A stretch of 64,000 nucleotides of DNA from the NCBI RefSeq assembly GCF_039852015.1, contig NZ_CP156627.1, forward strand, positions 1 through 64,000, written 5' to 3'. This document shows, one piece after another, positions 14,894-31,506 of the stretch. The notes under the pieces are model-generated. The model made no database searches and had not been told where the DNA came from. It worked only from the letters and a program-made list of their open reading frames with translations. Source of the stretch: Robbsia sp. KACC 23696 (lineage in GTDB: Bacteria; Pseudomonadota; Gammaproteobacteria; Burkholderiales; Burkholderiaceae). How positions within the stretch are numbered: the stretch's first letter is position 1; every line of letters begins with the position of its first letter. The position numbers were made by a program, and so were the translations under genes.

Positions 14894-15547
14894 ATGTTTT
14901 CGCGAAAGGCGGGACGCCCGTCCAATGCGATGGCGGGCGATGTAGAGGAGCGTATTTTCGACGCCGCCACCGTCATTTTTCTGAGAAACGGCTTTGGCGG
15001 GGCATCGCTCGATCGCATTGCCGAGGCGGCCGGCGCGAGTAAGGCGACCGTCTATAGCCGTTTCAGTGGCAAGGAAGCGCTCTTCTCCGAGGTGGTACGG
15101 CGGAACTGCGAGCGATGCCTGCAGATGGCCTACCATCGTCAGCACGGCGTCTCGCTCGCCGAGCAGCTTATTTCGGTAACGCAGGCGATCGTTACCCGCC
15201 TCCTCAGTGACGAAGTGCTCGGTTTGATACGTATGGTGATGGCCGAAGCGCCACGCTTCCCGTCCTTGGCGAAACTCACGCGCAATGCCGGCCGCGCGCA
15301 GGCGATTCAAGGCGTCGCCTGGATGATCGTCGAGCATGCCGCATCGGTTGGCCTCGGCGCGCTACCCGCTACGGAAGGGCACGCAGCGCATGCGCTTGCC
15401 ACCCAAGTGCTCGATGCGGTGGTCTCGCCGATGCTGATGCGCGCATTGATGCACGAGGACGTCGATGTGGTGCGGGGGGACGTCTCACGGCACGTAGAGC
15501 GGACCATCGGCACCTATGCCGCGGCCGGTGCGTTGGACGATTTCTGA
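14894..15547 (+). CDS. TetR/AcrR family transcriptional regulator
   Basis: A 217-residue repressor. The N-terminal helix-turn-helix spans about residues 14-60 (ERIFDAATVIFLRNGFGGAS, then IAEAAGASKATVYSRFSGKEALF), followed by a helical ligand-binding domain matching the AcrR-like C-terminal type. I start at ATG 14894 (MFSRKAGRPS), which places the DNA-binding domain at the usual distance. Earlier non-ATG starts at 14813 (TTG) and 14825/14828 (GTG) are open in frame, so the true start is uncertain. It is divergent from the emrAB-type operon and very likely controls it. Confidence 0.87.
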   Translation: MFSRKAGRPSNAMAGDVEERIFDAATVIFLRNGFGGASLDRIAEAAGASKATVYSRFSGKEALFSEVVRRNCERCLQMAYHRQHGVSLAEQLISVTQAIVTRLLSDEVLGLIRMVMAEAPRFPSLAKLTRNAGRAQAIQGVAWMIVEHAASVGLGALPATEGHAAHALATQVLDAVVSPMLMRALMHEDVDVVRGDVSRHVERTIGTYAAAGALDDF

Positions 15548-15573
15548 GCGGCGCCTTCACGCTAGCAAAACGA

Positions 15574-15613
15574 AAAAAAGCGAAGTGACGCAATATCGTC
15601 ACTTCGCTTTTTT
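15574..15613. terminator. Bidirectional intrinsic terminator
   Basis: A 17-base perfect stem (AAAAAAGCGAAGTGACG with its complement) encloses the 6-base loop CAATAT. The A-run on the 5' arm and T-run on the 3' arm give a U-tract in both directions. It sits between the end of the TetR gene and the end of the converging small gene at 15669. Confidence 0.9.
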
Positions 15614-15668
15614 CAATGCGCTAAACCGTACGCCAGCTTATATGCGTTCGCATTAGCCGGCCGGTTCT

Positions 15669-15872
15669 TTACCAGCACTCCCGCCACTTCTGCTCTGTTT
15701 CCGCGGTGTACAAAGCCCGACCTACCGCGATGAGTACCGACAGATCCATACCCTGCAATCGCGTCGCATTTTCGGCGATCCATTTCGCCAAATCGTGCGA
15801 TGTGCCACTGGGCTGTTGGGTAAGAGGTTCCGCGTCATTGCGAAATCGCTTGCTGATGTGTACGTCGTCCAT
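15669..15872 (-). CDS. Small hypothetical protein
   Basis: A 67-residue soluble-looking protein with no signal peptide or membrane segment and no domain I recognise. It is mildly acidic in the middle and ends in WRECW. I support it because a purine-rich AGAGAG lies 4-5 bases before the ATG, its 3' end converges on a strong bidirectional terminator, and no better frame covers the stretch. Function unknown. Confidence 0.5.
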   Translation of the reverse strand: MDDVHISKRFRNDAEPLTQQPSGTSHDLAKWIAENATRLQGMDLSVLIAVGRALYTAETEQKWRECW

Positions 15873-16454
15873 TGTTCTCTCTGGCAGTCAGTCGCGTCGA
15901 GGTCCCAACGCGAGGGGAAGGGTTGATACAGCACTGATATATCGGCTTGCACACACGTTAACGGAGAGTTTGACTATTCCTTTAGGGGATTTCTTTGGTA
16001 TTTTTGGACGAAAAACTGGGAAATTGAGCGCATTTCAGTAAATATGACCGACTATTTCCCGCTATCAGTAGAAATTGTCTGGTCATTCATCAGTTGAAAC
16101 CGTGCTGAGTCATCAACGTTCAGGCAAGCGAGGTCACGCTACCGCGACGGGGTGATGACACAAGCAAATGCGGATCAGCATGCGGATGTGCCCATTCGCG
16201 CACAAGCGCCCGCCGCCCTCACCCTCGCGCCACGAAAACTCAACTAGTCATCTATATCTTTTTGAAATAAGTGTTTTCCCTTATTCAACGTATTTGCATC
16301 ACGCATTTGGAAAAATATAATTTCCACGATTTTTTTGCAGTACATAAACGTTTGATTAAATTTTCTCCGGATAGCGCCGCTATATCAGCAGATCGGCCTC
16401 GCACGGACTACAACGTGCCTGCTATTCCCTTCATTTCTTTCATCGAGAAACGGT
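15873..16454. other. 582-bp intergenic region, AT-rich in its second half
   Basis: No convincing gene on either strand. From about 16240 to 16420 the sequence is clearly AT-richer than its surroundings (runs of T and A, few GC codons). It includes a candidate sigma-28 promoter for the chemoreceptor. A 63-codon open frame at 16271-16462 has no ribosome-binding site and overlaps the chemoreceptor start, so I do not call it. Confidence 0.6.
16357..16383 (+). promoter_or_regulatory. Candidate sigma-28 (FliA) promoter
   Basis: TAAA at 16357-16360, a 15-base spacer, then GCCGCTAT at 16376-16383. This matches the flagellar sigma-28 consensus TAAA-N15-GCCGATAA at all four -35 positions and six of eight -10 positions. 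It lies 72 bp upstream of the chemoreceptor start, where such a promoter is expected. Confidence 0.45.
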
Positions 16455-18005
16455 GTGTTTAATAATCTGTCTGTCAGAACTGCGTTGACGTTGGCGACCG
16501 GCGTCTTCGTCGCGCTGGTGCTCCTTGTCGGGGGCGTCGCCTACACCTCTTTGGCATCGGGAAACGCCGCGCTGGCCTCGATGTATGCGAACGACCTCAC
16601 GGCGAGCAATGCCCTTTCCGAGACGACGGGTCTGCTATTGCGCTGCCGTTCCGCAAAGAATCGCTACGTGTCGTTGGTCATGTCAAATAACGAAGACGGT
16701 GCGGCAAAGCAATTGACGCTCGCCGGCACCTTCTGCGCGCAATCCCAAAAAGCGTGGGACGCCTTCTCCTCGGTGCCGGTCGACGCCGGCACCCAGAGTC
16801 TGCTGGACGACGCGAAAAGCAAACACCAAGCCATGATGGACAAGGGCATCATGCCCGAGTTCGACGCGTTGAAAGCGAAGGATTTCGACGGTTATGACAA
16901 GATCCAATTGCAATTCAGCAGCCCGTTGTACGGTGCATTCGATGCATTGGTAAAGCCTCTGTCCGAGTACACGGCTCAGCGCGCCAAACAACGTTACGAC
17001 GATTCGCAGCGTCGCGCACGCAATGTCAATATCCTGCTGCTCGCCAGTGCACTGATCGCCGTCATCATCGGTTTCATCGTGCGACGGGTGCTGTCGACGA
17101 CTGTCGTAGACCCGGTGAATCGGATGATCGTCGACTTCGATCGTATCTCGAAAGGCGATCTGGCGAAGCCGGTCGTGCCGCAAGGCACGAATGAGATCGG
17201 GCAACTGCAGGCCGCGCTGCAGCATATGCAGGTAGAGCTTGCGTCGACGGTCCGCGACATCCGCTCGTCGACGGAATCGATCTCGGTGGCTTCAGGCGAG
17301 ATCGCTTCGGGCAATATGGACCTGTCGAGCCGAACGGAACAACAGGCTGCCTCCTTGCAGGAAACGGCTGCCAGCATGGAGGAGCTGTCCGGCACCGTGC
17401 GTCAAAATGCCGACAATGCCCGGCAAGCCAGCACATTGGCCCTGTCCGCATCGGAACTGGCGCTGAAGGGCGACGTCGTGGTACGCGATGTCATCAAGAC
17501 AATGCAGGAAATCAACGATCGATCCGGCAAGATCGCCGACATCATCACGATCATCGAAGGTATTGCCTTCCAGACCAATATCCTCGCATTGAACGCTGCC
17601 GTGGAAGCCGCACGTGCGGGGGAAGAAGGTCGCGGATTCGCGGTGGTCGCAGGCGAAGTGCGGACGCTGGCGCAACGCTCCTCATCGGCGGCGAAAGAAA
17701 TCAAGACGTTGATCGACGCCTCGGTCGATCGCGTTCAGGCCGGTACCCAACTGGTTGGCGAAGCGGGTGCGACGATGAACGACGTCAAGACGGCCGTGCG
17801 ACGCGTCACCGACATCATGGGAGAAATTTCAACGGCGACCGACGAGCAGAGCAACGGTATCGAACAGATTTCGCATGCCGTGCAACAGATGGACGGCGTC
17901 ACGCAACAAAACGCTGCCCTGGTAGAAGAAGCGGCGGCCGCCGCGCAATCACTGGAACAGCAGGCTAGCCATCTGCGCCAGGCAGTAGCCATCTTCCAGC
18001 TCTAA
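16455..18005 (+). CDS. Methyl-accepting chemotaxis protein
   Basis: A 516-residue chemoreceptor starting with GTG. The first membrane helix is at about residues 10-32, a four-helix-bundle-type periplasmic sensor follows, the second helix is near 190-210 and then a HAMP domain. The cytoplasmic signalling hairpin contains the invariant tip [20 protein letters not shown]. Methylation-type Glu/Gln-rich helices flank it on both sides. It ends in RQAVAIFQL with no NWxxF-type CheR tether. The ligand is unknown. The gene stands alone, preceded by a candidate sigma-28 promoter. Confidence 0.93.
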   Translation: MFNNLSVRTALTLATGVFVALVLLVGGVAYTSLASGNAALASMYANDLTASNALSETTGLLLRCRSAKNRYVSLVMSNNEDGAAKQLTLAGTFCAQSQKAWDAFSSVPVDAGTQSLLDDAKSKHQAMMDKGIMPEFDALKAKDFDGYDKIQLQFSSPLYGAFDALVKPLSEYTAQRAKQRYDDSQRRARNVNILLLASALIAVIIGFIVRRVLSTTVVDPVNRMIVDFDRISKGDLAKPVVPQGTNEIGQLQAALQHMQVELASTVRDIRSSTESISVASGEIASGNMDLSSRTEQQAASLQETAASMEELSGTVRQNADNARQASTLALSASELALKGDVVVRDVIKTMQEINDRSGKIADIITIIEGIAFQTNILALNAAVEAARAGEEGRGFAVVAGEVRTLAQRSSSAAKEIKTLIDASVDRVQAGTQLVGEAGATMNDVKTAVRRVTDIMGEISTATDEQSNGIEQISHAVQQMDGVTQQNAALVEEAAAAAQSLEQQASHLRQAVAIFQL

Positions 18006-18302: not shown

Positions 18303-19280
18303 ATGCAAATAGGAATTCTCACCAGCCCACGCGATGCGTCTGAACACTTCAATGTCGATGCTGCAGACAATCCCAAACCGTCTCTAGATCGCTATCTTCC
18401 TGAGCACCATCTACACTATATCGACATCCGAAATAGCGACTTCGAGATGGCCATGAAAGCAGTGTCGCAAAAGAACTTCGATGTCGTTGTGAATCTCTGT
18501 GACGGCGGCAATGACGAGCACATCCCGGGCATAGAGGTCGTTCGTTATCTGGAAAACGCCACAATCGCTTTTACCGGTGCTGCTTCCGCGTTCTATGACC
18601 CTACGCGAGAAGAAATGAAGCAGGCCGCCGCGAACGCGGGCGTTGCAACGCCCCGCTCCCTCGCGGTCCATTCGATGACGGAGATCACGCATCCCGTTTT
18701 ATCGACACTCGCTTATCCGCTCATCGTCAAGCACCCCCACAGTTACAACAGCATCGGACTCACACGGGCTTCCCGCGTAGTCGATGACGTGAGTATGCGC
18801 CTTGAGCTAGATCGGATGATCAGTGCGTTTGGCGGTGCCTTGATTGAGGAATTCATCGACGGTCGGGAATTCACAGTGTTGGTAACCGAGCCGCGTTTGG
18901 GCGAGGATCTTCCATGGGTATTCACCCCGCATGAAGTGGGTTTTCCCATCGGCGAGACGTTTAAACATTTCGATCTAAAGTGGAAGCACTATGCCGATAT
19001 GACGTTGCGCCCGATTGCGGATGAGACCTTATCCGGAAAATTGAAGGATGCCTCCATCGCGATCTTCCAACACCTTAACGGCAATGGCTATGCACGCCTC
19101 GATTTCCGAATGAATGCAATGTCCGATCTGATCTTCCTGGAAATAAACCCAAACTGCACGATATTCATGCCGACGTCGGAAAGCTTCGGCTGCGCAGACA
19201 CGATTCTGGCCCACGACGGCGCACACCAGAGTTTCGCTCGCCATATCCTCGATAGAGCATGCGCAAGGTCAATCATGTAA
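18303..19280 (+). CDS. D-alanine-D-alanine ligase-like ATP-grasp protein
   Basis: A 325-residue ATP-grasp protein of the Ddl-like superfamily. The N-terminal half has the pre-ATP-grasp fold (MQIGILTSPRD, then VVNLCDGG). ATP-binding lysine region YPLIVKHPHSYNSIG is near 140-153 and LIEEFIDGREFTVLV near 181-195. The metal-binding pair is RLDFRMN and LEINPNC near 265-285. With the Asp, Glu and Asn ligands present it should be catalytically competent. Such enzymes ligate a carboxylate to an amine, but the EINPNC motif differs from that of true D-Ala-D-Ala ligases, so a cell-wall role is unlikely. It heads a three-gene block with an internally deleted paralogue and a SET-domain fusion. RBS AGGACGG precedes the ATG. 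Confidence 0.8.
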   Translation: MQIGILTSPRDASEHFNVDAADNPKPSLDRYLPEHHLHYIDIRNSDFEMAMKAVSQKNFDVVVNLCDGGNDEHIPGIEVVRYLENATIAFTGAASAFYDPTREEMKQAAANAGVATPRSLAVHSMTEITHPVLSTLAYPLIVKHPHSYNSIGLTRASRVVDDVSMRLELDRMISAFGGALIEEFIDGREFTVLVTEPRLGEDLPWVFTPHEVGFPIGETFKHFDLKWKHYADMTLRPIADETLSGKLKDASIAIFQHLNGNGYARLDFRMNAMSDLIFLEINPNCTIFMPTSESFGCADTILAHDGAHQSFARHILDRACARSIM

Positions 19281-19410
19281 GCGAACGGGGTCCATCTGCA
19301 CCGTCGTCCAAATACTTCGCATAGGATGCCTTATTTTTTTCGATAGTGCACAGCTTCGGCATCTTCGTACGGATTCAACCTAATACGATTTAGGCATACA
19401 GGATGACACC

Positions 19411-19797
19411 ATGCATGTAGGAATTCTATTCAGTGGGCAAGATCCTTCGGAACACGTCACCTTGCATGACAGTGACGATGCGGAACACGATCTTAAGTGG
19501 AAGGACTGCGCGGAGATGTCGCTGTTTCCAGTCGAAGATCAGACACTATCGAAAAGGCTTCAGCTTGCCTCGATCGGAATTTTCCAGCAACTTTCAGGTA
19601 CAGGCTACGCCCGCCTCGACTTCCGATTGAACCTACTATCGGTGCTATTTTTCCTGGAGACTAATCCTAATTGTTCGATTTTCATGCCGACCCCGGAAAG
19701 TTACGGTAGCGCCGATACCATTCTCATCAACGATCGTTCTCTCCCGGCATTTGTCCATCACATCCTCGAGAGAGCACGGACCAGATCAATCGGCTGA
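19411..19797 (+). pseudogene. Internally deleted ATP-grasp paralogue
   Basis: A 128-residue open frame that matches both ends of the preceding ATP-grasp protein but lacks its middle. Residues 1-23 (MHVGILFSGQDPSEH onward) align with the N-terminus of the neighbour. From residue 27 on (DLKWKDCAEMSL, GYARLDFRLN, LETNPNCSIFMPTPES) it aligns with neighbour residues 224 to the end. About 197 residues, including the ATP-binding lysine and grasp region, are missing without a frameshift. The frame is open and has its own AGGATG ribosome-binding site, so a small protein may still be made. Divergence is moderate, so the duplication is not recent. Either a decaying pseudogene or a repurposed mini-protein. 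Confidence 0.7.
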
Positions 19798-19884
19798 AAT
19801 GGCTGACTTGATAGCTACCAGCGCACCGAACCGCCAGCGCCGAACATTTTCTTCACTGATCCAATAACCGCTTGGAGCTTGATT

Positions 19885-21792
19885 TTGAAAATAGCGATCG
19901 TCTACGATTCAGCGCATTACCCGACACCCGTCGACTTTCGCGACGCGCGTGCCGATACATCGCGCTTCCTGCGGGAACACTATGATGTCACTTTCATGGG
20001 TACGTCTCTCGCCACACTACACGACGACCTTTGTGACATTGCACAAAAGAACGTCGACAGCGTAGTCAACCTGTGCCCCATTTCCCCACCCGACCGTTCT
20101 CTTGGTCGGATGGTGCAACAAGCGTTGAAGTCCTTAGCGCTTCCATTTACCGGTGCGGATTGCCAAACCGGCCTGCTGCACGGTTCCGCGTTACGGATGG
20201 TTGCGCATTCCGCAGGGCTCGCCATCCCTAGATTCACTATTATCGACACGCTCGAGGATCTCGATACCCGCGTCGGCTTTCTAGACGCGCCCTTTCGCGT
20301 TACCTCGTTGCCACGGCTCGACACCATGCCGGGTGCCAGCGTGTCAGCGAATAACGGCAAAGTGCTCACGGAGCGGATAGCCCATTTATTACGTCCGGGC
20401 ATTAACACCCTGCTCGTCGAAGAGACAAAGACTGGCCGTATCTTCGATGTTGCTGTCGTCGGGAAGTGGGGAAAAGAACGGGTAGCGAAAGCCCTTTTGC
20501 CGCACGAATATAGCAATGCAATCGACGCACAGTCGAGTCTCACAAAAAGCGCGCACGTTGATGATCTCGCGATCGCGCGACTCCAGGAGGCGGCCGTTAC
20601 CCTCTTCCAAGCGATACCGGAGAGCGGTTACCTCCTCTGTAAGTTGCAACTCGGTGAACAGGGCGACGTCTCATTATTAGACGTATCTTTCAACGCCGAC
20701 ATCTTCAAGACGGAATCAAACGACCAAGGATCTATCTGGGATAACTGTCAGCGTCCGGTAGACGACATGTGCGGCGTCCTCGTCGGTCAAATCGAACTCG
20801 CCGTGGAACGGCATCGCAAGACCAAAAATGCGTATGAAGTGCGATTCGATCCCACGCATGGATTCGGCCTGCACGCGGCAATCGACATCTCCGAAGGCGT
20901 CGTTGTCGTGCCGGGCGAGAGTCTGAGCCTACGGCTAATCAGCAATGCGGTCGTCGAGCACGAATGGACGCAAGCCAATCGTGACGTCTTCAACCGATAT
21001 TGCTGGCCGGTGAATGCCGGCGTATCGGCATATTGGTCCGACAACCCCGCCGATTGGAAGCCGCTCAATCACTCTTGCGATCCAAACACCGTATTGACTG
21101 GACTCGATCAGGTCGCAAGACGGAACATCACGCGCGGCGAAGCGATCACCTTGGATTATGCGACGTTCTGTGGACCGACAATGACGCCATTCACGTGTTT
21201 GTGCGCGACACCCTCGTGTCGTGTCACCGTGACCGGAACCGACTACCGGCTTGCTTCGCTTCAGGATACCTATAGAGACCATTTCAGCGCGCACTTGCGC
21301 GCGTTGATAAAAGCAGAAACCGATCACAACCCGTTTTCGATTCGGCGTACGCGCTACGGCGGCGGCTTGATTGCAGGCAAGGCCTGGCATAAAGATGACA
21401 TTCTTGCACAGCTGAACTGGACCGATGCAGTCGATGCGCCTACCCGTTGGACGGTTCAGCTCGGGCCGCGGAAGCATGCGGAACTTCTGCCGCCAATTCT
21501 CTCGTGGAGCAACCATTCCTGTGATCCCAATATCGCAATGGATATCGGTGCCAACGTTGTCCGTGCACTACGTGACATCGCAAACGGCGACGATCTGGTT
21601 TGGTTTTATCCTAGCACCGAATGGAAAATGATCGAGTCGTTTCAATGTGAATGCGGTACGAAAAGCTGCCTCGGCCTGATCGATGGCGCGGAAACACTGG
21701 CCGCCGAGGTGCTTAGCCGCTACCGGCTTTCACCCAACGTCGAAGCGCATATCAGAGCGCGAGAAAAGGACACGGTCGAGGAACTGGTTTAA
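19885..21792 (+). CDS. Fusion of a degenerate ATP-grasp domain with two SET domains
   Basis: A 635-residue protein. Residues 1 to about 300 align with the ATP-grasp gene upstream (KIAIVYDS, QKNVDSVVNLC, LPFTGADC) but lack its key residues: the ATP lysine segment VKHPHS has become VTSLPR, LDFRMN has become LQLGEQ, and LEINPNC has become LDVSFNA. Residues about 318-450 and 482-600 are tandem SET modules, each with NHSCDPN (near 394 and 542) and a CxCx4C post-SET cluster (CLCATPSC near 440, CECGTKSC near 590). SET domains methylate protein lysines using S-adenosylmethionine. I start at TTG 19885 rather than TTG 19879 because GGAG is then 7 bases upstream and the N-terminus aligns with both paralogues. 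Confidence 0.8.
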   Translation: MKIAIVYDSAHYPTPVDFRDARADTSRFLREHYDVTFMGTSLATLHDDLCDIAQKNVDSVVNLCPISPPDRSLGRMVQQALKSLALPFTGADCQTGLLHGSALRMVAHSAGLAIPRFTIIDTLEDLDTRVGFLDAPFRVTSLPRLDTMPGASVSANNGKVLTERIAHLLRPGINTLLVEETKTGRIFDVAVVGKWGKERVAKALLPHEYSNAIDAQSSLTKSAHVDDLAIARLQEAAVTLFQAIPESGYLLCKLQLGEQGDVSLLDVSFNADIFKTESNDQGSIWDNCQRPVDDMCGVLVGQIELAVERHRKTKNAYEVRFDPTHGFGLHAAIDISEGVVVVPGESLSLRLISNAVVEHEWTQANRDVFNRYCWPVNAGVSAYWSDNPADWKPLNHSCDPNTVLTGLDQVARRNITRGEAITLDYATFCGPTMTPFTCLCATPSCRVTVTGTDYRLASLQDTYRDHFSAHLRALIKAETDHNPFSIRRTRYGGGLIAGKAWHKDDILAQLNWTDAVDAPTRWTVQLGPRKHAELLPPILSWSNHSCDPNIAMDIGANVVRALRDIANGDDLVWFYPSTEWKMIESFQCECGTKSCLGLIDGAETLAAEVLSRYRLSPNVEAHIRAREKDTVEELV

Positions 21793-29325: not shown

Positions 29326-31506
29326 ATGACGGCCGCCGGCGTGCTCCTCATTCCAAGACAGCAGGCGAAACTCATGACGAAGATTTCCGCTGGCGCGATC
29401 CACGCCGCCGACCCGATTCAAGAAAACGCCGGCCAGCCGGCTTCAGCAGCCGACATTGCCGGTGCACGCCCGCGCTCGCCGTCCCGCCGTGCGAGCAGCG
29501 ATCACGCGTCGGTGGACGCCAGTTTGCATAAGCTGCGCCGCACATCGACGGCGTCTCGTACCGAGTCGCCGGCCGGTGCACGACGGCCACGTGCGACACT
29601 GCCCGAATCGATTTCGCCGCACGACGCCGCGATTGCTGTGACGACGACGCCACCGACATCCGCGCGCAATAGCCTGTCCGGCCCCACGGCCGGCTCGATT
29701 ACGTCACACGCCGCCATGGAAGGCACGCGTGACGTAAGCCACACCGACGACACGGCCAGCGTCTCGAGTCAAGCGTCGGTCGAAGACCTCTCTCATGTCA
29801 AGCCGACGCCGACCTATCAAGGCGTCATTCCGGCCGCAGGGGCACCATGGTCGAAGGGACAGGCCCAAGTCGAGCAGGCGTGGCGCGCGATATCGAACAA
29901 GCAACAAACGCTCAGGCTCGAACTGCAATCGGGGAATGTCGATGCCGCGCGTGCGGCTCAGATCCGCCAATGCCTCGCCGTCGACCTCGCCAGCGTGGCG
30001 CCGGGAACCGCCGTCGCGCTCGCGCCGCAAGGCGACATCAAGGAACAGTACCAGGCATTTCGTGCCGCGCTTCAGATCCAGAATGCCACATTGAAAGATG
30101 GCGCATTGATCGAAATAAGCGCGAATCCGACAATGCCGACCCTTCTCCGCACGCTTACCGAAGGCAACGTTTTCCCGCACGACGCAAAAGTCGGCGAGCT
30201 TCACCCGTATGCCTTCCTGTCTGGGCTGACGCAGTTGCATGCGCCCAATGACGCGGCGCTGTCCGCAACGATGGCGCATTTGATGCACGAAATGCCGAAG
30301 CTCCAGGCCGATCTCGGTGCGGTCAGCCTGATGCATATGGAGCAACAGGTATCGCGCGATTGGCAAAGCTATATCACCTGGATCGCGAGCGCGGGCTGGG
30401 CCGCCGGCATGGGCTATCTCGCGGGACCGCAAGAGAAGTCGGTGCGCAAGGATCTCCACCTTGCCCCCGAACAGACGCAGCTCAGCGGACGGCAGGCCTT
30501 CATATTAGGCGCGGCCGACGCAAGTACGTCCGGGAACTCCGAAGCGGGCGACGCCTTGCTGATCGACGGACTGGACAAACTGAGTCATAACGAAAGCCCG
30601 GCACCCGATGCCGATGCACCGGCCAATATGACGAAGGCCTGGCTGATCGGCACCATCACCGCCTTGCCGTCCAGCTATCTCACCTACGCGAATATCTCGA
30701 AAACCGCCAAGATCATTGCAGGCCTGCCGGCGAATCTGTTGGCCGCCATCGGCGGCGCGGCGCCGCTCCCCATGACCCGTCAAAAGCGGAACGACCACAA
30801 TCTTGCCGCGTATGTCGAATCGATCAGCAACGGCATGCAAAATGAGATGAGTGCAAAGAAGGTCGGGGAATTGATCGATGCATCGGAGCGTGTCGCCACG
30901 ATGGGGCAACTGCTGCAAAAAGGCGTGGCCTGGAGCTTTGCCGGCGGCTTCATCACGTGGGCGATTCAATCGGGACATTCGCAAGGTCAGATCGTTTCGA
31001 CGATGCAGCGCCTGCTGCTGAATCCCATGGAGGCGCACGCGCTAATGGGCGGCGGTCTCCTAGGTGAGTACGTTTCCGTTCTCGGCGCCACGCGTGCGGA
31101 AAAGAATGCGAACCTCGCTACCCGCGTCAGTGCCAATGCCGCGGAGAACAAAGATACGTCGATGGACGAAATCATTGCGATCCACGAACCCAAAGTCGAA
31201 AAATATATTCAAGGCTTCGGGCGCGGTGCAGGCGATGCAATCAATGCCCTGATCAATGGCGCCGAGGATGGCACCCGCTGGGCAGCGCGCAAAGTCGGCC
31301 TGCCAGTAAAAGAACACATGCGTCATCGCATCGATTACGAACGCGTGGGCGGTGGCACGGGGGCAGATGCGCTCGAGCAGGTATCGACCCGTCGCGGGGC
31401 CGACGACCGAGGATTCGGCCAGGCCGCCGGCAGCATTCCCTTAAGCGAGCGCGATCAGACAATCGATGTGGAGCGCAACGAGCGCGATTTCCGCCCCGCC
31501 GTATAA
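29326..31506 (+). CDS. Candidate type III secreted effector, novel
   Basis: A 726-residue protein with no domain I recognise. The first 150 residues are Ser/Thr/Ala/Pro/Arg-rich and look disordered, as in type III secretion signals; there is no Sec signal peptide. The remainder is mostly helical, with moderately hydrophobic stretches (ITWIASAGWAAGMGYLAG near 345-362, LIGTITALPSSYLTY near 441-455, GVAWSFAGGFITWAI near 529-543) that might insert into a membrane. The C-terminal 60 residues are charged. A perfect hrpII/PIP box precedes it, which is the main support for an effector role. ATG 29326 is used; ATG 29374 (MTKISAGAIH) is a reasonable alternative. It stands alone between transporter operons. 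Confidence 0.7.
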   Translation: MTAAGVLLIPRQQAKLMTKISAGAIHAADPIQENAGQPASAADIAGARPRSPSRRASSDHASVDASLHKLRRTSTASRTESPAGARRPRATLPESISPHDAAIAVTTTPPTSARNSLSGPTAGSITSHAAMEGTRDVSHTDDTASVSSQASVEDLSHVKPTPTYQGVIPAAGAPWSKGQAQVEQAWRAISNKQQTLRLELQSGNVDAARAAQIRQCLAVDLASVAPGTAVALAPQGDIKEQYQAFRAALQIQNATLKDGALIEISANPTMPTLLRTLTEGNVFPHDAKVGELHPYAFLSGLTQLHAPNDAALSATMAHLMHEMPKLQADLGAVSLMHMEQQVSRDWQSYITWIASAGWAAGMGYLAGPQEKSVRKDLHLAPEQTQLSGRQAFILGAADASTSGNSEAGDALLIDGLDKLSHNESPAPDADAPANMTKAWLIGTITALPSSYLTYANISKTAKIIAGLPANLLAAIGGAAPLPMTRQKRNDHNLAAYVESISNGMQNEMSAKKVGELIDASERVATMGQLLQKGVAWSFAGGFITWAIQSGHSQGQIVSTMQRLLLNPMEAHALMGGGLLGEYVSVLGATRAEKNANLATRVSANAAENKDTSMDEIIAIHEPKVEKYIQGFGRGAGDAINALINGAEDGTRWAARKVGLPVKEHMRHRIDYERVGGGTGADALEQVSTRRGADDRGFGQAAGSIPLSERDQTIDVERNERDFRPAV

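What the first reader, a model, noticed from the sequence alone, without database searches (positions are those of the whole stretch)
18303..21792. ATP-grasp ligase, truncated copy and SET-domain fusion in one cluster
Three consecutive genes share the same N-terminal fold: an apparently active Ddl-like ATP-grasp protein, a short derivative, and a fusion carrying two SET methyltransferase modules. The pairing of a carboxylate-amine ligase with protein-lysine methyltransferase domains suggests a peptide- or protein-modifying system, for example making an amino-acid conjugate or tagging a protein. The distinctive EINPNC motif separates the ligase from true D-Ala-D-Ala ligases. I know of no characterised pathway of this composition.
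Basis: partly seen in the sequence, partly recalled or inferred. Interest (0 to 1): 0.8.

Follow-up and report, generated by a model that had tools for sequence, protein, structure and literature searches.

The report
Amide-ligase operon with SET methyltransferases
Three neighbouring bacterial genes look like a rearranged, partly decayed version of a conserved operon that joins enzymes linking amino acids to two methyl-adding SET enzymes, probably to build a small methylated molecule.

Summary
The genes are real and the pairing is not chance. The window holds an intact Ddl-fold ATP-grasp ligase, a 128-aa paralogue lacking the central ATP-binding part, and a fusion of a dead ATP-grasp with two different SET domains. 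In another phylum, 25 of 218 genomes of one order (it contains a MAG titled Chitinophagales) carry an ATP-grasp–SET1 fusion (gene B) with a second ATP-grasp (gene A) beside it in 25 of 25, a free SET2 gene in the same gene run in 19 of 25 (in the genome in 21 of 25; 1 of 37 control genomes), and an ABC-transporter membrane gene in 10 of 25. In trees the window's SET1 and SET2 each join their own operon family (99/96, 100/93). SET2's closest solved relative by sequence and fold is BurB, which methylates free methionine. Best reading (inferred): a small-molecule pathway in which Ddl-type ligases make an amide and SET domains methylate substrate or product, rather than protein-lysine methylation. 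Substrate and product are unknown. Caveats: the free ligase's two nearest relatives have no SET neighbour; in this genome the cluster is sporadic, low in GC and partly degenerate. Open-access literature searches found no description of the pairing in bacteria.

The parts
18303..19280 (+). Ddl-fold ATP-grasp ligase, 325 aa, apparently active (E-x-N-x-x-C clade)
19411..19797 (+). 128-aa in-frame internally deleted paralogue of the ligase (N-terminal ~26 residues + C-lobe; no central ATP-binding part)
   Evidence: C-lobe dN/dS 0.06 with dS near saturation
19879..21792 (+). fusion protein: dead ATP-grasp + SET1 + SET2 (start more likely TTG 19885)
19879..20808 (+). degenerate ATP-grasp half of the fusion, grouped with operon gene B ATP-grasps (94/78, very long branch; within a 29-row clade 99/97)
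20836..21318 (+). SET1 module (about aa 320-480), in a clade with 25 of 25 operon SET1 domains (99/96)
21319..21789 (+). SET2 module (aa 481-637), BurB-like, in a clade with the 17 operon SET2 proteins put in the tree (100/93)

Best explanation
The cluster is a rearranged copy of a conserved operon (usual order SET2 > ATP-grasp A > ATP-grasp B–SET1 > in some an ABC-transporter membrane protein) that makes a small methylated, amide-linked metabolite. Proposed steps: the Ddl-type ATP-grasp enzyme activates a carboxylate of an amino acid or short peptide as acyl phosphate and joins it to an amine (inferred from fold and conserved Mg/ATP residues). SET1, tethered to the ligase, and SET2, BurB-like, transfer methyl groups from SAM to side chains (N or S) of the ligase's substrate or product (inferred). 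In some Bacteroidota an ABC membrane protein may export the product (inferred). In the window the ligase half of the fusion has died and the free ligase next door would supply the amide-forming step; the 128-aa copy may be a remnant or a non-catalytic partner. Shown: gene content, co-occurrence, grouping of SET1 and SET2 with the operon's, catalytic-residue status, nearest folds. Not shown: any activity, substrate or product.
Against: SET1 is about as close to histone methyltransferases as to BurB (KMT2D 1e-9, BurB 3.7e-9). The tree's link of SET2 to the BurB clade is weak (85/24), and BurB's partner genes were not seen in the operon. The two nearest relatives of the free ligase lack SET neighbours and their genomes lack SET2. 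One control genome has two SET2 genes with no ATP-grasp in the 14 kb held around each. 4 of 25 operon genomes lack SET2. In the window no gene A is seen, one ATP-grasp is dead and one copy is truncated, so the pathway may be incomplete here.
Confidence: 0.55

Rival explanations
1. Protein-modifying system: the ATP-grasp enzymes add an amino acid to a protein (like tubulin-tyrosine ligases) and the SET domains methylate lysines of that protein.
For: SET1 scores as well with histone-lysine methyltransferases as with BurB; [quoted passage not shown] most characterised SET domains are protein methyltransferases (recalled).
Against: SET2 is nearest BurB by sequence and fold; the ATP-grasp model is nearest Ddl/Van ligases, which act on amino acids; no further protein or peptide gene recurs widely in the operon.
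Confidence: 0.25
2. In this genome the cluster is a decaying foreign island without present function; the operon works only in other bacteria.
For: Ligase found in 1 of 299 family genomes and 1 of 398 phylum genomes, own genome only; GC 0.50-0.56 versus 0.59-0.63 in 6 of 6 flanking genes measured; one truncated gene, one dead domain, no gene A seen.
Against: All three ORFs are open; SET1 and SET2 keep NHSCDPN and the catalytic tyrosine; ligase and short copy differ mostly at third codon positions (26, 19, 55) with dN/dS 0.06, though selection may predate the truncation and dS is near saturation. Low GC is not confined to the cluster: 15500-16499 is 0.497.
Confidence: 0.15
3. Two unrelated things: an ordinary Ddl-like ligase for a modified cell-wall or dipeptide product, next to an independent SET protein.
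For: L041 and L042 carry the ligase without SET nearby.
Against: Gene B fuses both in 25 genomes and the window fusion groups with it by SET1 (99/96) and, on a very long branch, by ATP-grasp (94/78).
Confidence: 0.05

Closest known systems
BurB, SET-domain methionine S-methyltransferase (malleicyprol / DMSP pathway)
   Same: SET2 shares its fold best of the solved structures compared, and the T-x-Q ... H, HSC-PN, Y-x-S/A-T/A-E, F-C-C-C pattern.
   Different: SET2 forms its own clade (100/93) apart from BurB, has FFYP/WFYP instead of DYA, and sits with ATP-grasp ligases.
D-alanine-D-alanine ligase (Ddl/VanA family)
   Different: Below all 23 NCBIfam cut-offs listed (e.g. 62.1 versus 243 bits); E-x-N-x-x-C motif; the genome has a true Ddl elsewhere.
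ATP-grasp amidoligase operons (Iyer and colleagues 2009, recalled; the id I tried is not held) and graspetide RiPPs (PMC8939145, search listing and abstract start only)
   Same: Operons built on ATP-grasp peptide-bond-forming enzymes.
   Different: SET-type methyltransferases; no conserved precursor peptide found.
TTLL12 (SET-like + TTL/ATP-grasp in one human protein; PMC3520985, search listing only)
   Same: SET-like and ATP-grasp-type domains in one chain.
   Different: Different ATP-grasp family (recalled) and a eukaryotic protein; no sequence comparison was made here.

Membership tests
D-alanine-D-alanine ligase | Score above the curated family cut-off (NF002378, 243 bits) | tested here: not met
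   62.1 bits; another gene of the genome scores 365.6
D-alanine-D-alanine ligase | Ddl fold with ATP/Mg residues | tested here: met
D-alanine-D-alanine ligase | Makes D-Ala-D-Ala | not testable with these tools
   No assay
BurB methionine S-methyltransferase | Closest solved relative by sequence and fold | tested here: met
BurB methionine S-methyltransferase | Lies inside the BurB clade | tested here: not met
   SET2 is a separate clade of 18 rows, 100/93; BurB, an 85-residue fragment, sits with three SETs of other loci (100/93); the two clades are linked at 85/24 only
BurB methionine S-methyltransferase | Neighbouring decarboxylase, transaminase and dehydrogenase (BurI, BurD, BurE) | tested here: inconclusive
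   No ORF family other than SET/A/B and the ABC protein recurs in more than 4 of 25 loci; only some neighbours were named by Pfam
SET-domain methyltransferase superfamily | Pfam SET above cut-off, NHSC-PN and catalytic Tyr | tested here: met
   49 bits versus 22.4; N65, H66, C68, P70, Y97 invariant in 18 SET2 rows
Protein-lysine methyltransferase | Methylates protein lysine | not testable with these tools
   No assay; nearest solved relative of SET2 is not a protein methyltransferase
Graspetide / ATP-grasp RiPP | Conserved precursor peptide gene beside the ligase | tested here: not met
   535 small same-strand ORFs near 25 loci; the largest related sets reach 3 loci
Known anti-phage defence system | Match in PADLOC-DB | tested here: not met
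   0 families for the 3 proteins at E 0.01

The most novel reading that the evidence does not exclude
SET1 and SET2 are two new families of class-V methyltransferases that act on small molecules in an amide-ligase pathway, conserved in part of the Chitinophagales and passed by horizontal transfer to a betaproteobacterium, making a methylated amino-acid conjugate or peptide not yet described. SET domains would then be a recurrent tailoring tool of bacterial metabolism rather than chiefly protein methylases.
Probability: 0.45. Interest if true: 0.85.

Novelty: new variant of a known kind. Interest (0 to 1): 0.72.

Why it matters
BurB was called a rare prokaryotic SET enzyme, natural-product methyltransferases having been known only in classes I and III (PMC7496086 passages). 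A conserved operon in which two separate SET families ride with amide ligases would suggest that small-molecule SET methylation is not a single oddity. It gives a defined unit of three to four genes to express and assay, and warns that 'protein-lysine N-methyltransferase', the name bacterial SET genes get in public records, may be wrong for some of them.

Tried and rejected
Viral collections: three scans of viral contigs and one of phage records found no relative. Plasmid records gave only distant ATP-grasps (best about 32%) and SETs matching one module. Neighbourhoods were opened for 12 hits: 4 of the 20 records and 8 of the 12; two of these carry no annotation in the stretch.

Ordinary Ddl: rejected. 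Known defence system: no PADLOC match. RiPP with leader peptide: no conserved small ORF. Tandem duplication of one SET within the fusion: rejected by the tree. Promoter and terminator scans showed nothing above chance.

An alignment of the fusion with genes B and SET2 together placed the operon SET1 on the window's SET2 and was dropped; SET2 was modelled alone. The fusion as a whole, its dead ATP-grasp half and SET1 were therefore not modelled.

Synteny: the gene after the cluster has only weak relatives in the two other genomes of the genus searched, so no empty site could be shown. The first script stopped with an error after printing most rows. The seven-row 'histone-like' background in the SET tree is small, so how SET1 and SET2 stand against all SETs is untested; BurB is there only as an 85-residue fragment. 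Bootstraps of both trees had not settled.

Controls with limits: of the 37 genomes used as 'without gene B', 18 (G1301-G1318) are shown with no match; for the other 19 (G1319-G1337), not printed there, I infer it from the handle numbers. The one control with strong SET2, G1337, is among the inferred ones. With the 18 alone it is 21 of 25 against 0 of 18, p 1.4e-8.

Full report
WHAT IS IN THE WINDOW. Three same-strand ORFs lie at 18303-19280, 19411-19797 and 19879-21792. The first is a 325-aa protein of the Ddl ATP-grasp family (E 2.8e-15). The third is a 637-aa protein with two SET stretches (E 8.8e-13); its first half is homologous to the ligase (BLASTP E 2e-12). The second, 128 aa, is the ligase with an internal deletion: about 26 N-terminal residues followed by the C-lobe, 62% identical over 101 residues.

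WHAT IS ALIVE. Across 43 aligned rows (window ligase and short copy, two MAG relatives, 25 of 25 genes B and 14 of 25 genes A) R265, D267, R269, E280, N282 and C285 are invariant. They give the signature E-x-N-x-x-C. The window fusion, which is not among these rows, has lost them. Both its SET domains keep NHSCDPN and the catalytic tyrosine region. The short copy's C-lobe differs from the ligase's at codon positions 1, 2, 3 in 26, 19, 55 sites, dN/dS 0.06; dS is near saturation and the constraint may predate the deletion.

WHO ELSE HAS IT. In its own family the ligase is found in 1 of 299 genomes, its own, at E 1e-12, and in a phylum sample in 1 of 398 at 1e-14. A class sample gave 16 other genomes of 369 at 1e-10 with Ddl-like proteins of 26-34% identity. 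The fusion protein matched 12 of 60 other relatives at E 0.001, over SET stretches only. A scan of the genome collection with two strict patterns gave three loci: L041 (Verrucomicrobiota MAG, 39%), L042 (Chitinophagales MAG, 42%) and a weak third, L043. L041 and L042 have no SET within the 15.5 and 20.9 kb held, and their genomes hold other SETs but no SET2. This counts against a fixed coupling of the free ligase to SET. In a Verrucomicrobiota sample 36 of 194 genomes matched an ATP-grasp profile at 1e-20, but only L041's own genome strongly (2.7e-135; the next 9.4e-42).

THE OPERON. A profile of the ligase family hit two more genomes of 247 in the class of L042's genome, each with two adjacent ATP-grasps. 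Reading them showed gene A, a second ATP-grasp; gene B, an ATP-grasp fused to a SET domain; and a free SET gene. A gene B profile searched in that order (218 genomes; the draw includes the Chitinophagales MAG) found 26 genomes, 25 of them with the full ATP-grasp–SET fusion, the other being the MAG itself. tblastn over the 25 loci: gene A beside gene B in 25 of 25; free SET2 in the same gene run in 19 of 25; ABC-transporter membrane protein (PF13748) in 10 of 25. In L052 SET2 lies downstream, after the ABC gene; elsewhere it lies before gene A. Genes are on one strand; A-B spacing is -86 to 116 bases, B-ABC 66 to 164.

CO-OCCURRENCE. Genome-wide, strong SET2 (E 1e-60 or better) is in 21 of 25 genomes with gene B and in 1 of 37 controls (G1337, two copies); five of the other 36 have weaker matches of 5e-20 to 6e-9. 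Fisher p is 1.4e-11. Eighteen of the controls are shown without gene B; for 19 this is inferred from handle order. With the 18 alone it is 21 of 25 against 0 of 18, p 1.4e-8. Neither is corrected for kinship, and the controls are the first handles of the draw, not a random pick. As a further control, 31 loci with other ATP-grasps of this superfamily and the two MAG ligases hold no SET at E 0.001; one is the same place as L041, so 30 distinct loci, 255 kb, and sixteen of them (L024-L039) are only 2.2-3.8 kb long.

TREES. Of 60 SET rows, the window SET1 joins 25 of 25 operon SET1 (99/96) and the window SET2 joins the 17 operon SET2 in the tree (100/93; two of the 19 had been lost by the ORF picker). 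The ATP-grasp tree (87 rows) puts window ligase, L041 and L042 together (98/95), and the dead half of the fusion, on a very long branch, with the 25 genes B (94/78); all 29 form one clade (99/97). So the window protein reads as gene B with a dead ATP-grasp, fused to SET2, next to a free sister ligase. I saw no gene A in the window's genome: L053 gene A scores 89.5 bits with the Ddl model, while the genome's third-best match after Ddl and the window ligase has 42.2.

MECHANISM. I therefore favour an amide-ligase metabolite pathway with two SET tailoring steps (0.55) over protein modification (0.25). The steps are inferred; nothing here names the substrate. In this genome the cluster looks imported and partly eroded: GC 0.50-0.56 against 0.59-0.63 in the six flanking genes measured, GC3 0.54-0.62 against 0.65-0.76, although 15500-16499 nearby is also low, 0.497.

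LITERATURE. Searches for 'ATP-grasp' with 'SET domain' plus 'operon' and 'methyltransferase', plus 'Bacteroidetes' and 'gene cluster', and for 'SET domain' with 'D-ala D-ala ligase' and 'fusion' returned no paper; a broader one returned only TTLL12. A review of bacterial SET proteins has no hit for ligase, operon, biosynthe-, Bacteroidetes or gene cluster (PMC3980110, term search only). The library is open-access only, so absence there is weak.

WHERE THE WINDOW COMES FROM. One stretch of about 2.1 kb some 5 kb past the cluster resembles Paraburkholderia and Mycetohabitans DNA at about 70% (the 12 best of 81 records listed; 10 unlisted records match other parts at 90-95%), so a Burkholderiaceae-like host is inferred, no more.

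CHECK.

Noticed in passing
L005:1423-3141 (-), 572 aa: A decarboxylase-like protein (ornithine/diaminopimelate-decarboxylase look, by eye) fused to a BurB-like SET domain (64 of 159 columns identical to the Eleftheria SET): perhaps a one-chain BurI-BurB.
   Followed up: partly
L061:3479-10258 (Streptomyces sp. SAT1 plasmid): PGM1-type peptide ligase, SET protein, lysine 2,3-aminomutase, SidA-type monooxygenase, FAD oxidoreductase and a class I tRNA ligase in a row: another ligase-SET pairing in a likely biosynthetic cluster.
   Followed up: partly
L058:1-10330 (Eleftheria terrae plasmid): A close BurB relative (65 of 85 residues identical to the BurB fragment) between a PKS and a dioxygenase/aminotransferase/aldehyde dehydrogenase set and a thioester-reductase gene: perhaps a malleicyprol-type cluster outside Burkholderia.
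   Followed up: partly
L056:3874-5786 (Rhizobium bangladeshense plasmid p7): Asparagine-synthase-like gene, BurB-like SET and SAM decarboxylase adjacent.
   Followed up: no
L060:4686-6230 (Paraburkholderia phenoliruptrix plasmid): SET-like domain inside a gene annotated as HAD-IA hydrolase, after a phosphoserine aminotransferase.
   Followed up: no
L019:1530-7011 (Thioflavicoccus mobilis plasmid): Ddl-like ATP-grasp with diaminobutyrate transaminase, SbnA and ornithine cyclodeaminase genes: likely a diaminopropionate-based metabolite cluster.
   Followed up: no
L127-L131 (Verrucomicrobiota): Tandem pairs of Ddl-like ATP-grasp genes in 5 loci, with no SET in the stretches held.
   Followed up: partly
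L146:6755-7246 and L147:6806-7297: Two SET2 genes in one genome (G1337) without ATP-grasp in the 14 kb held around each: SET2 can exist apart from the operon.
   Followed up: yes
window 29326-31506: 726-aa ORF with no Pfam match at E 0.001.
   Followed up: no
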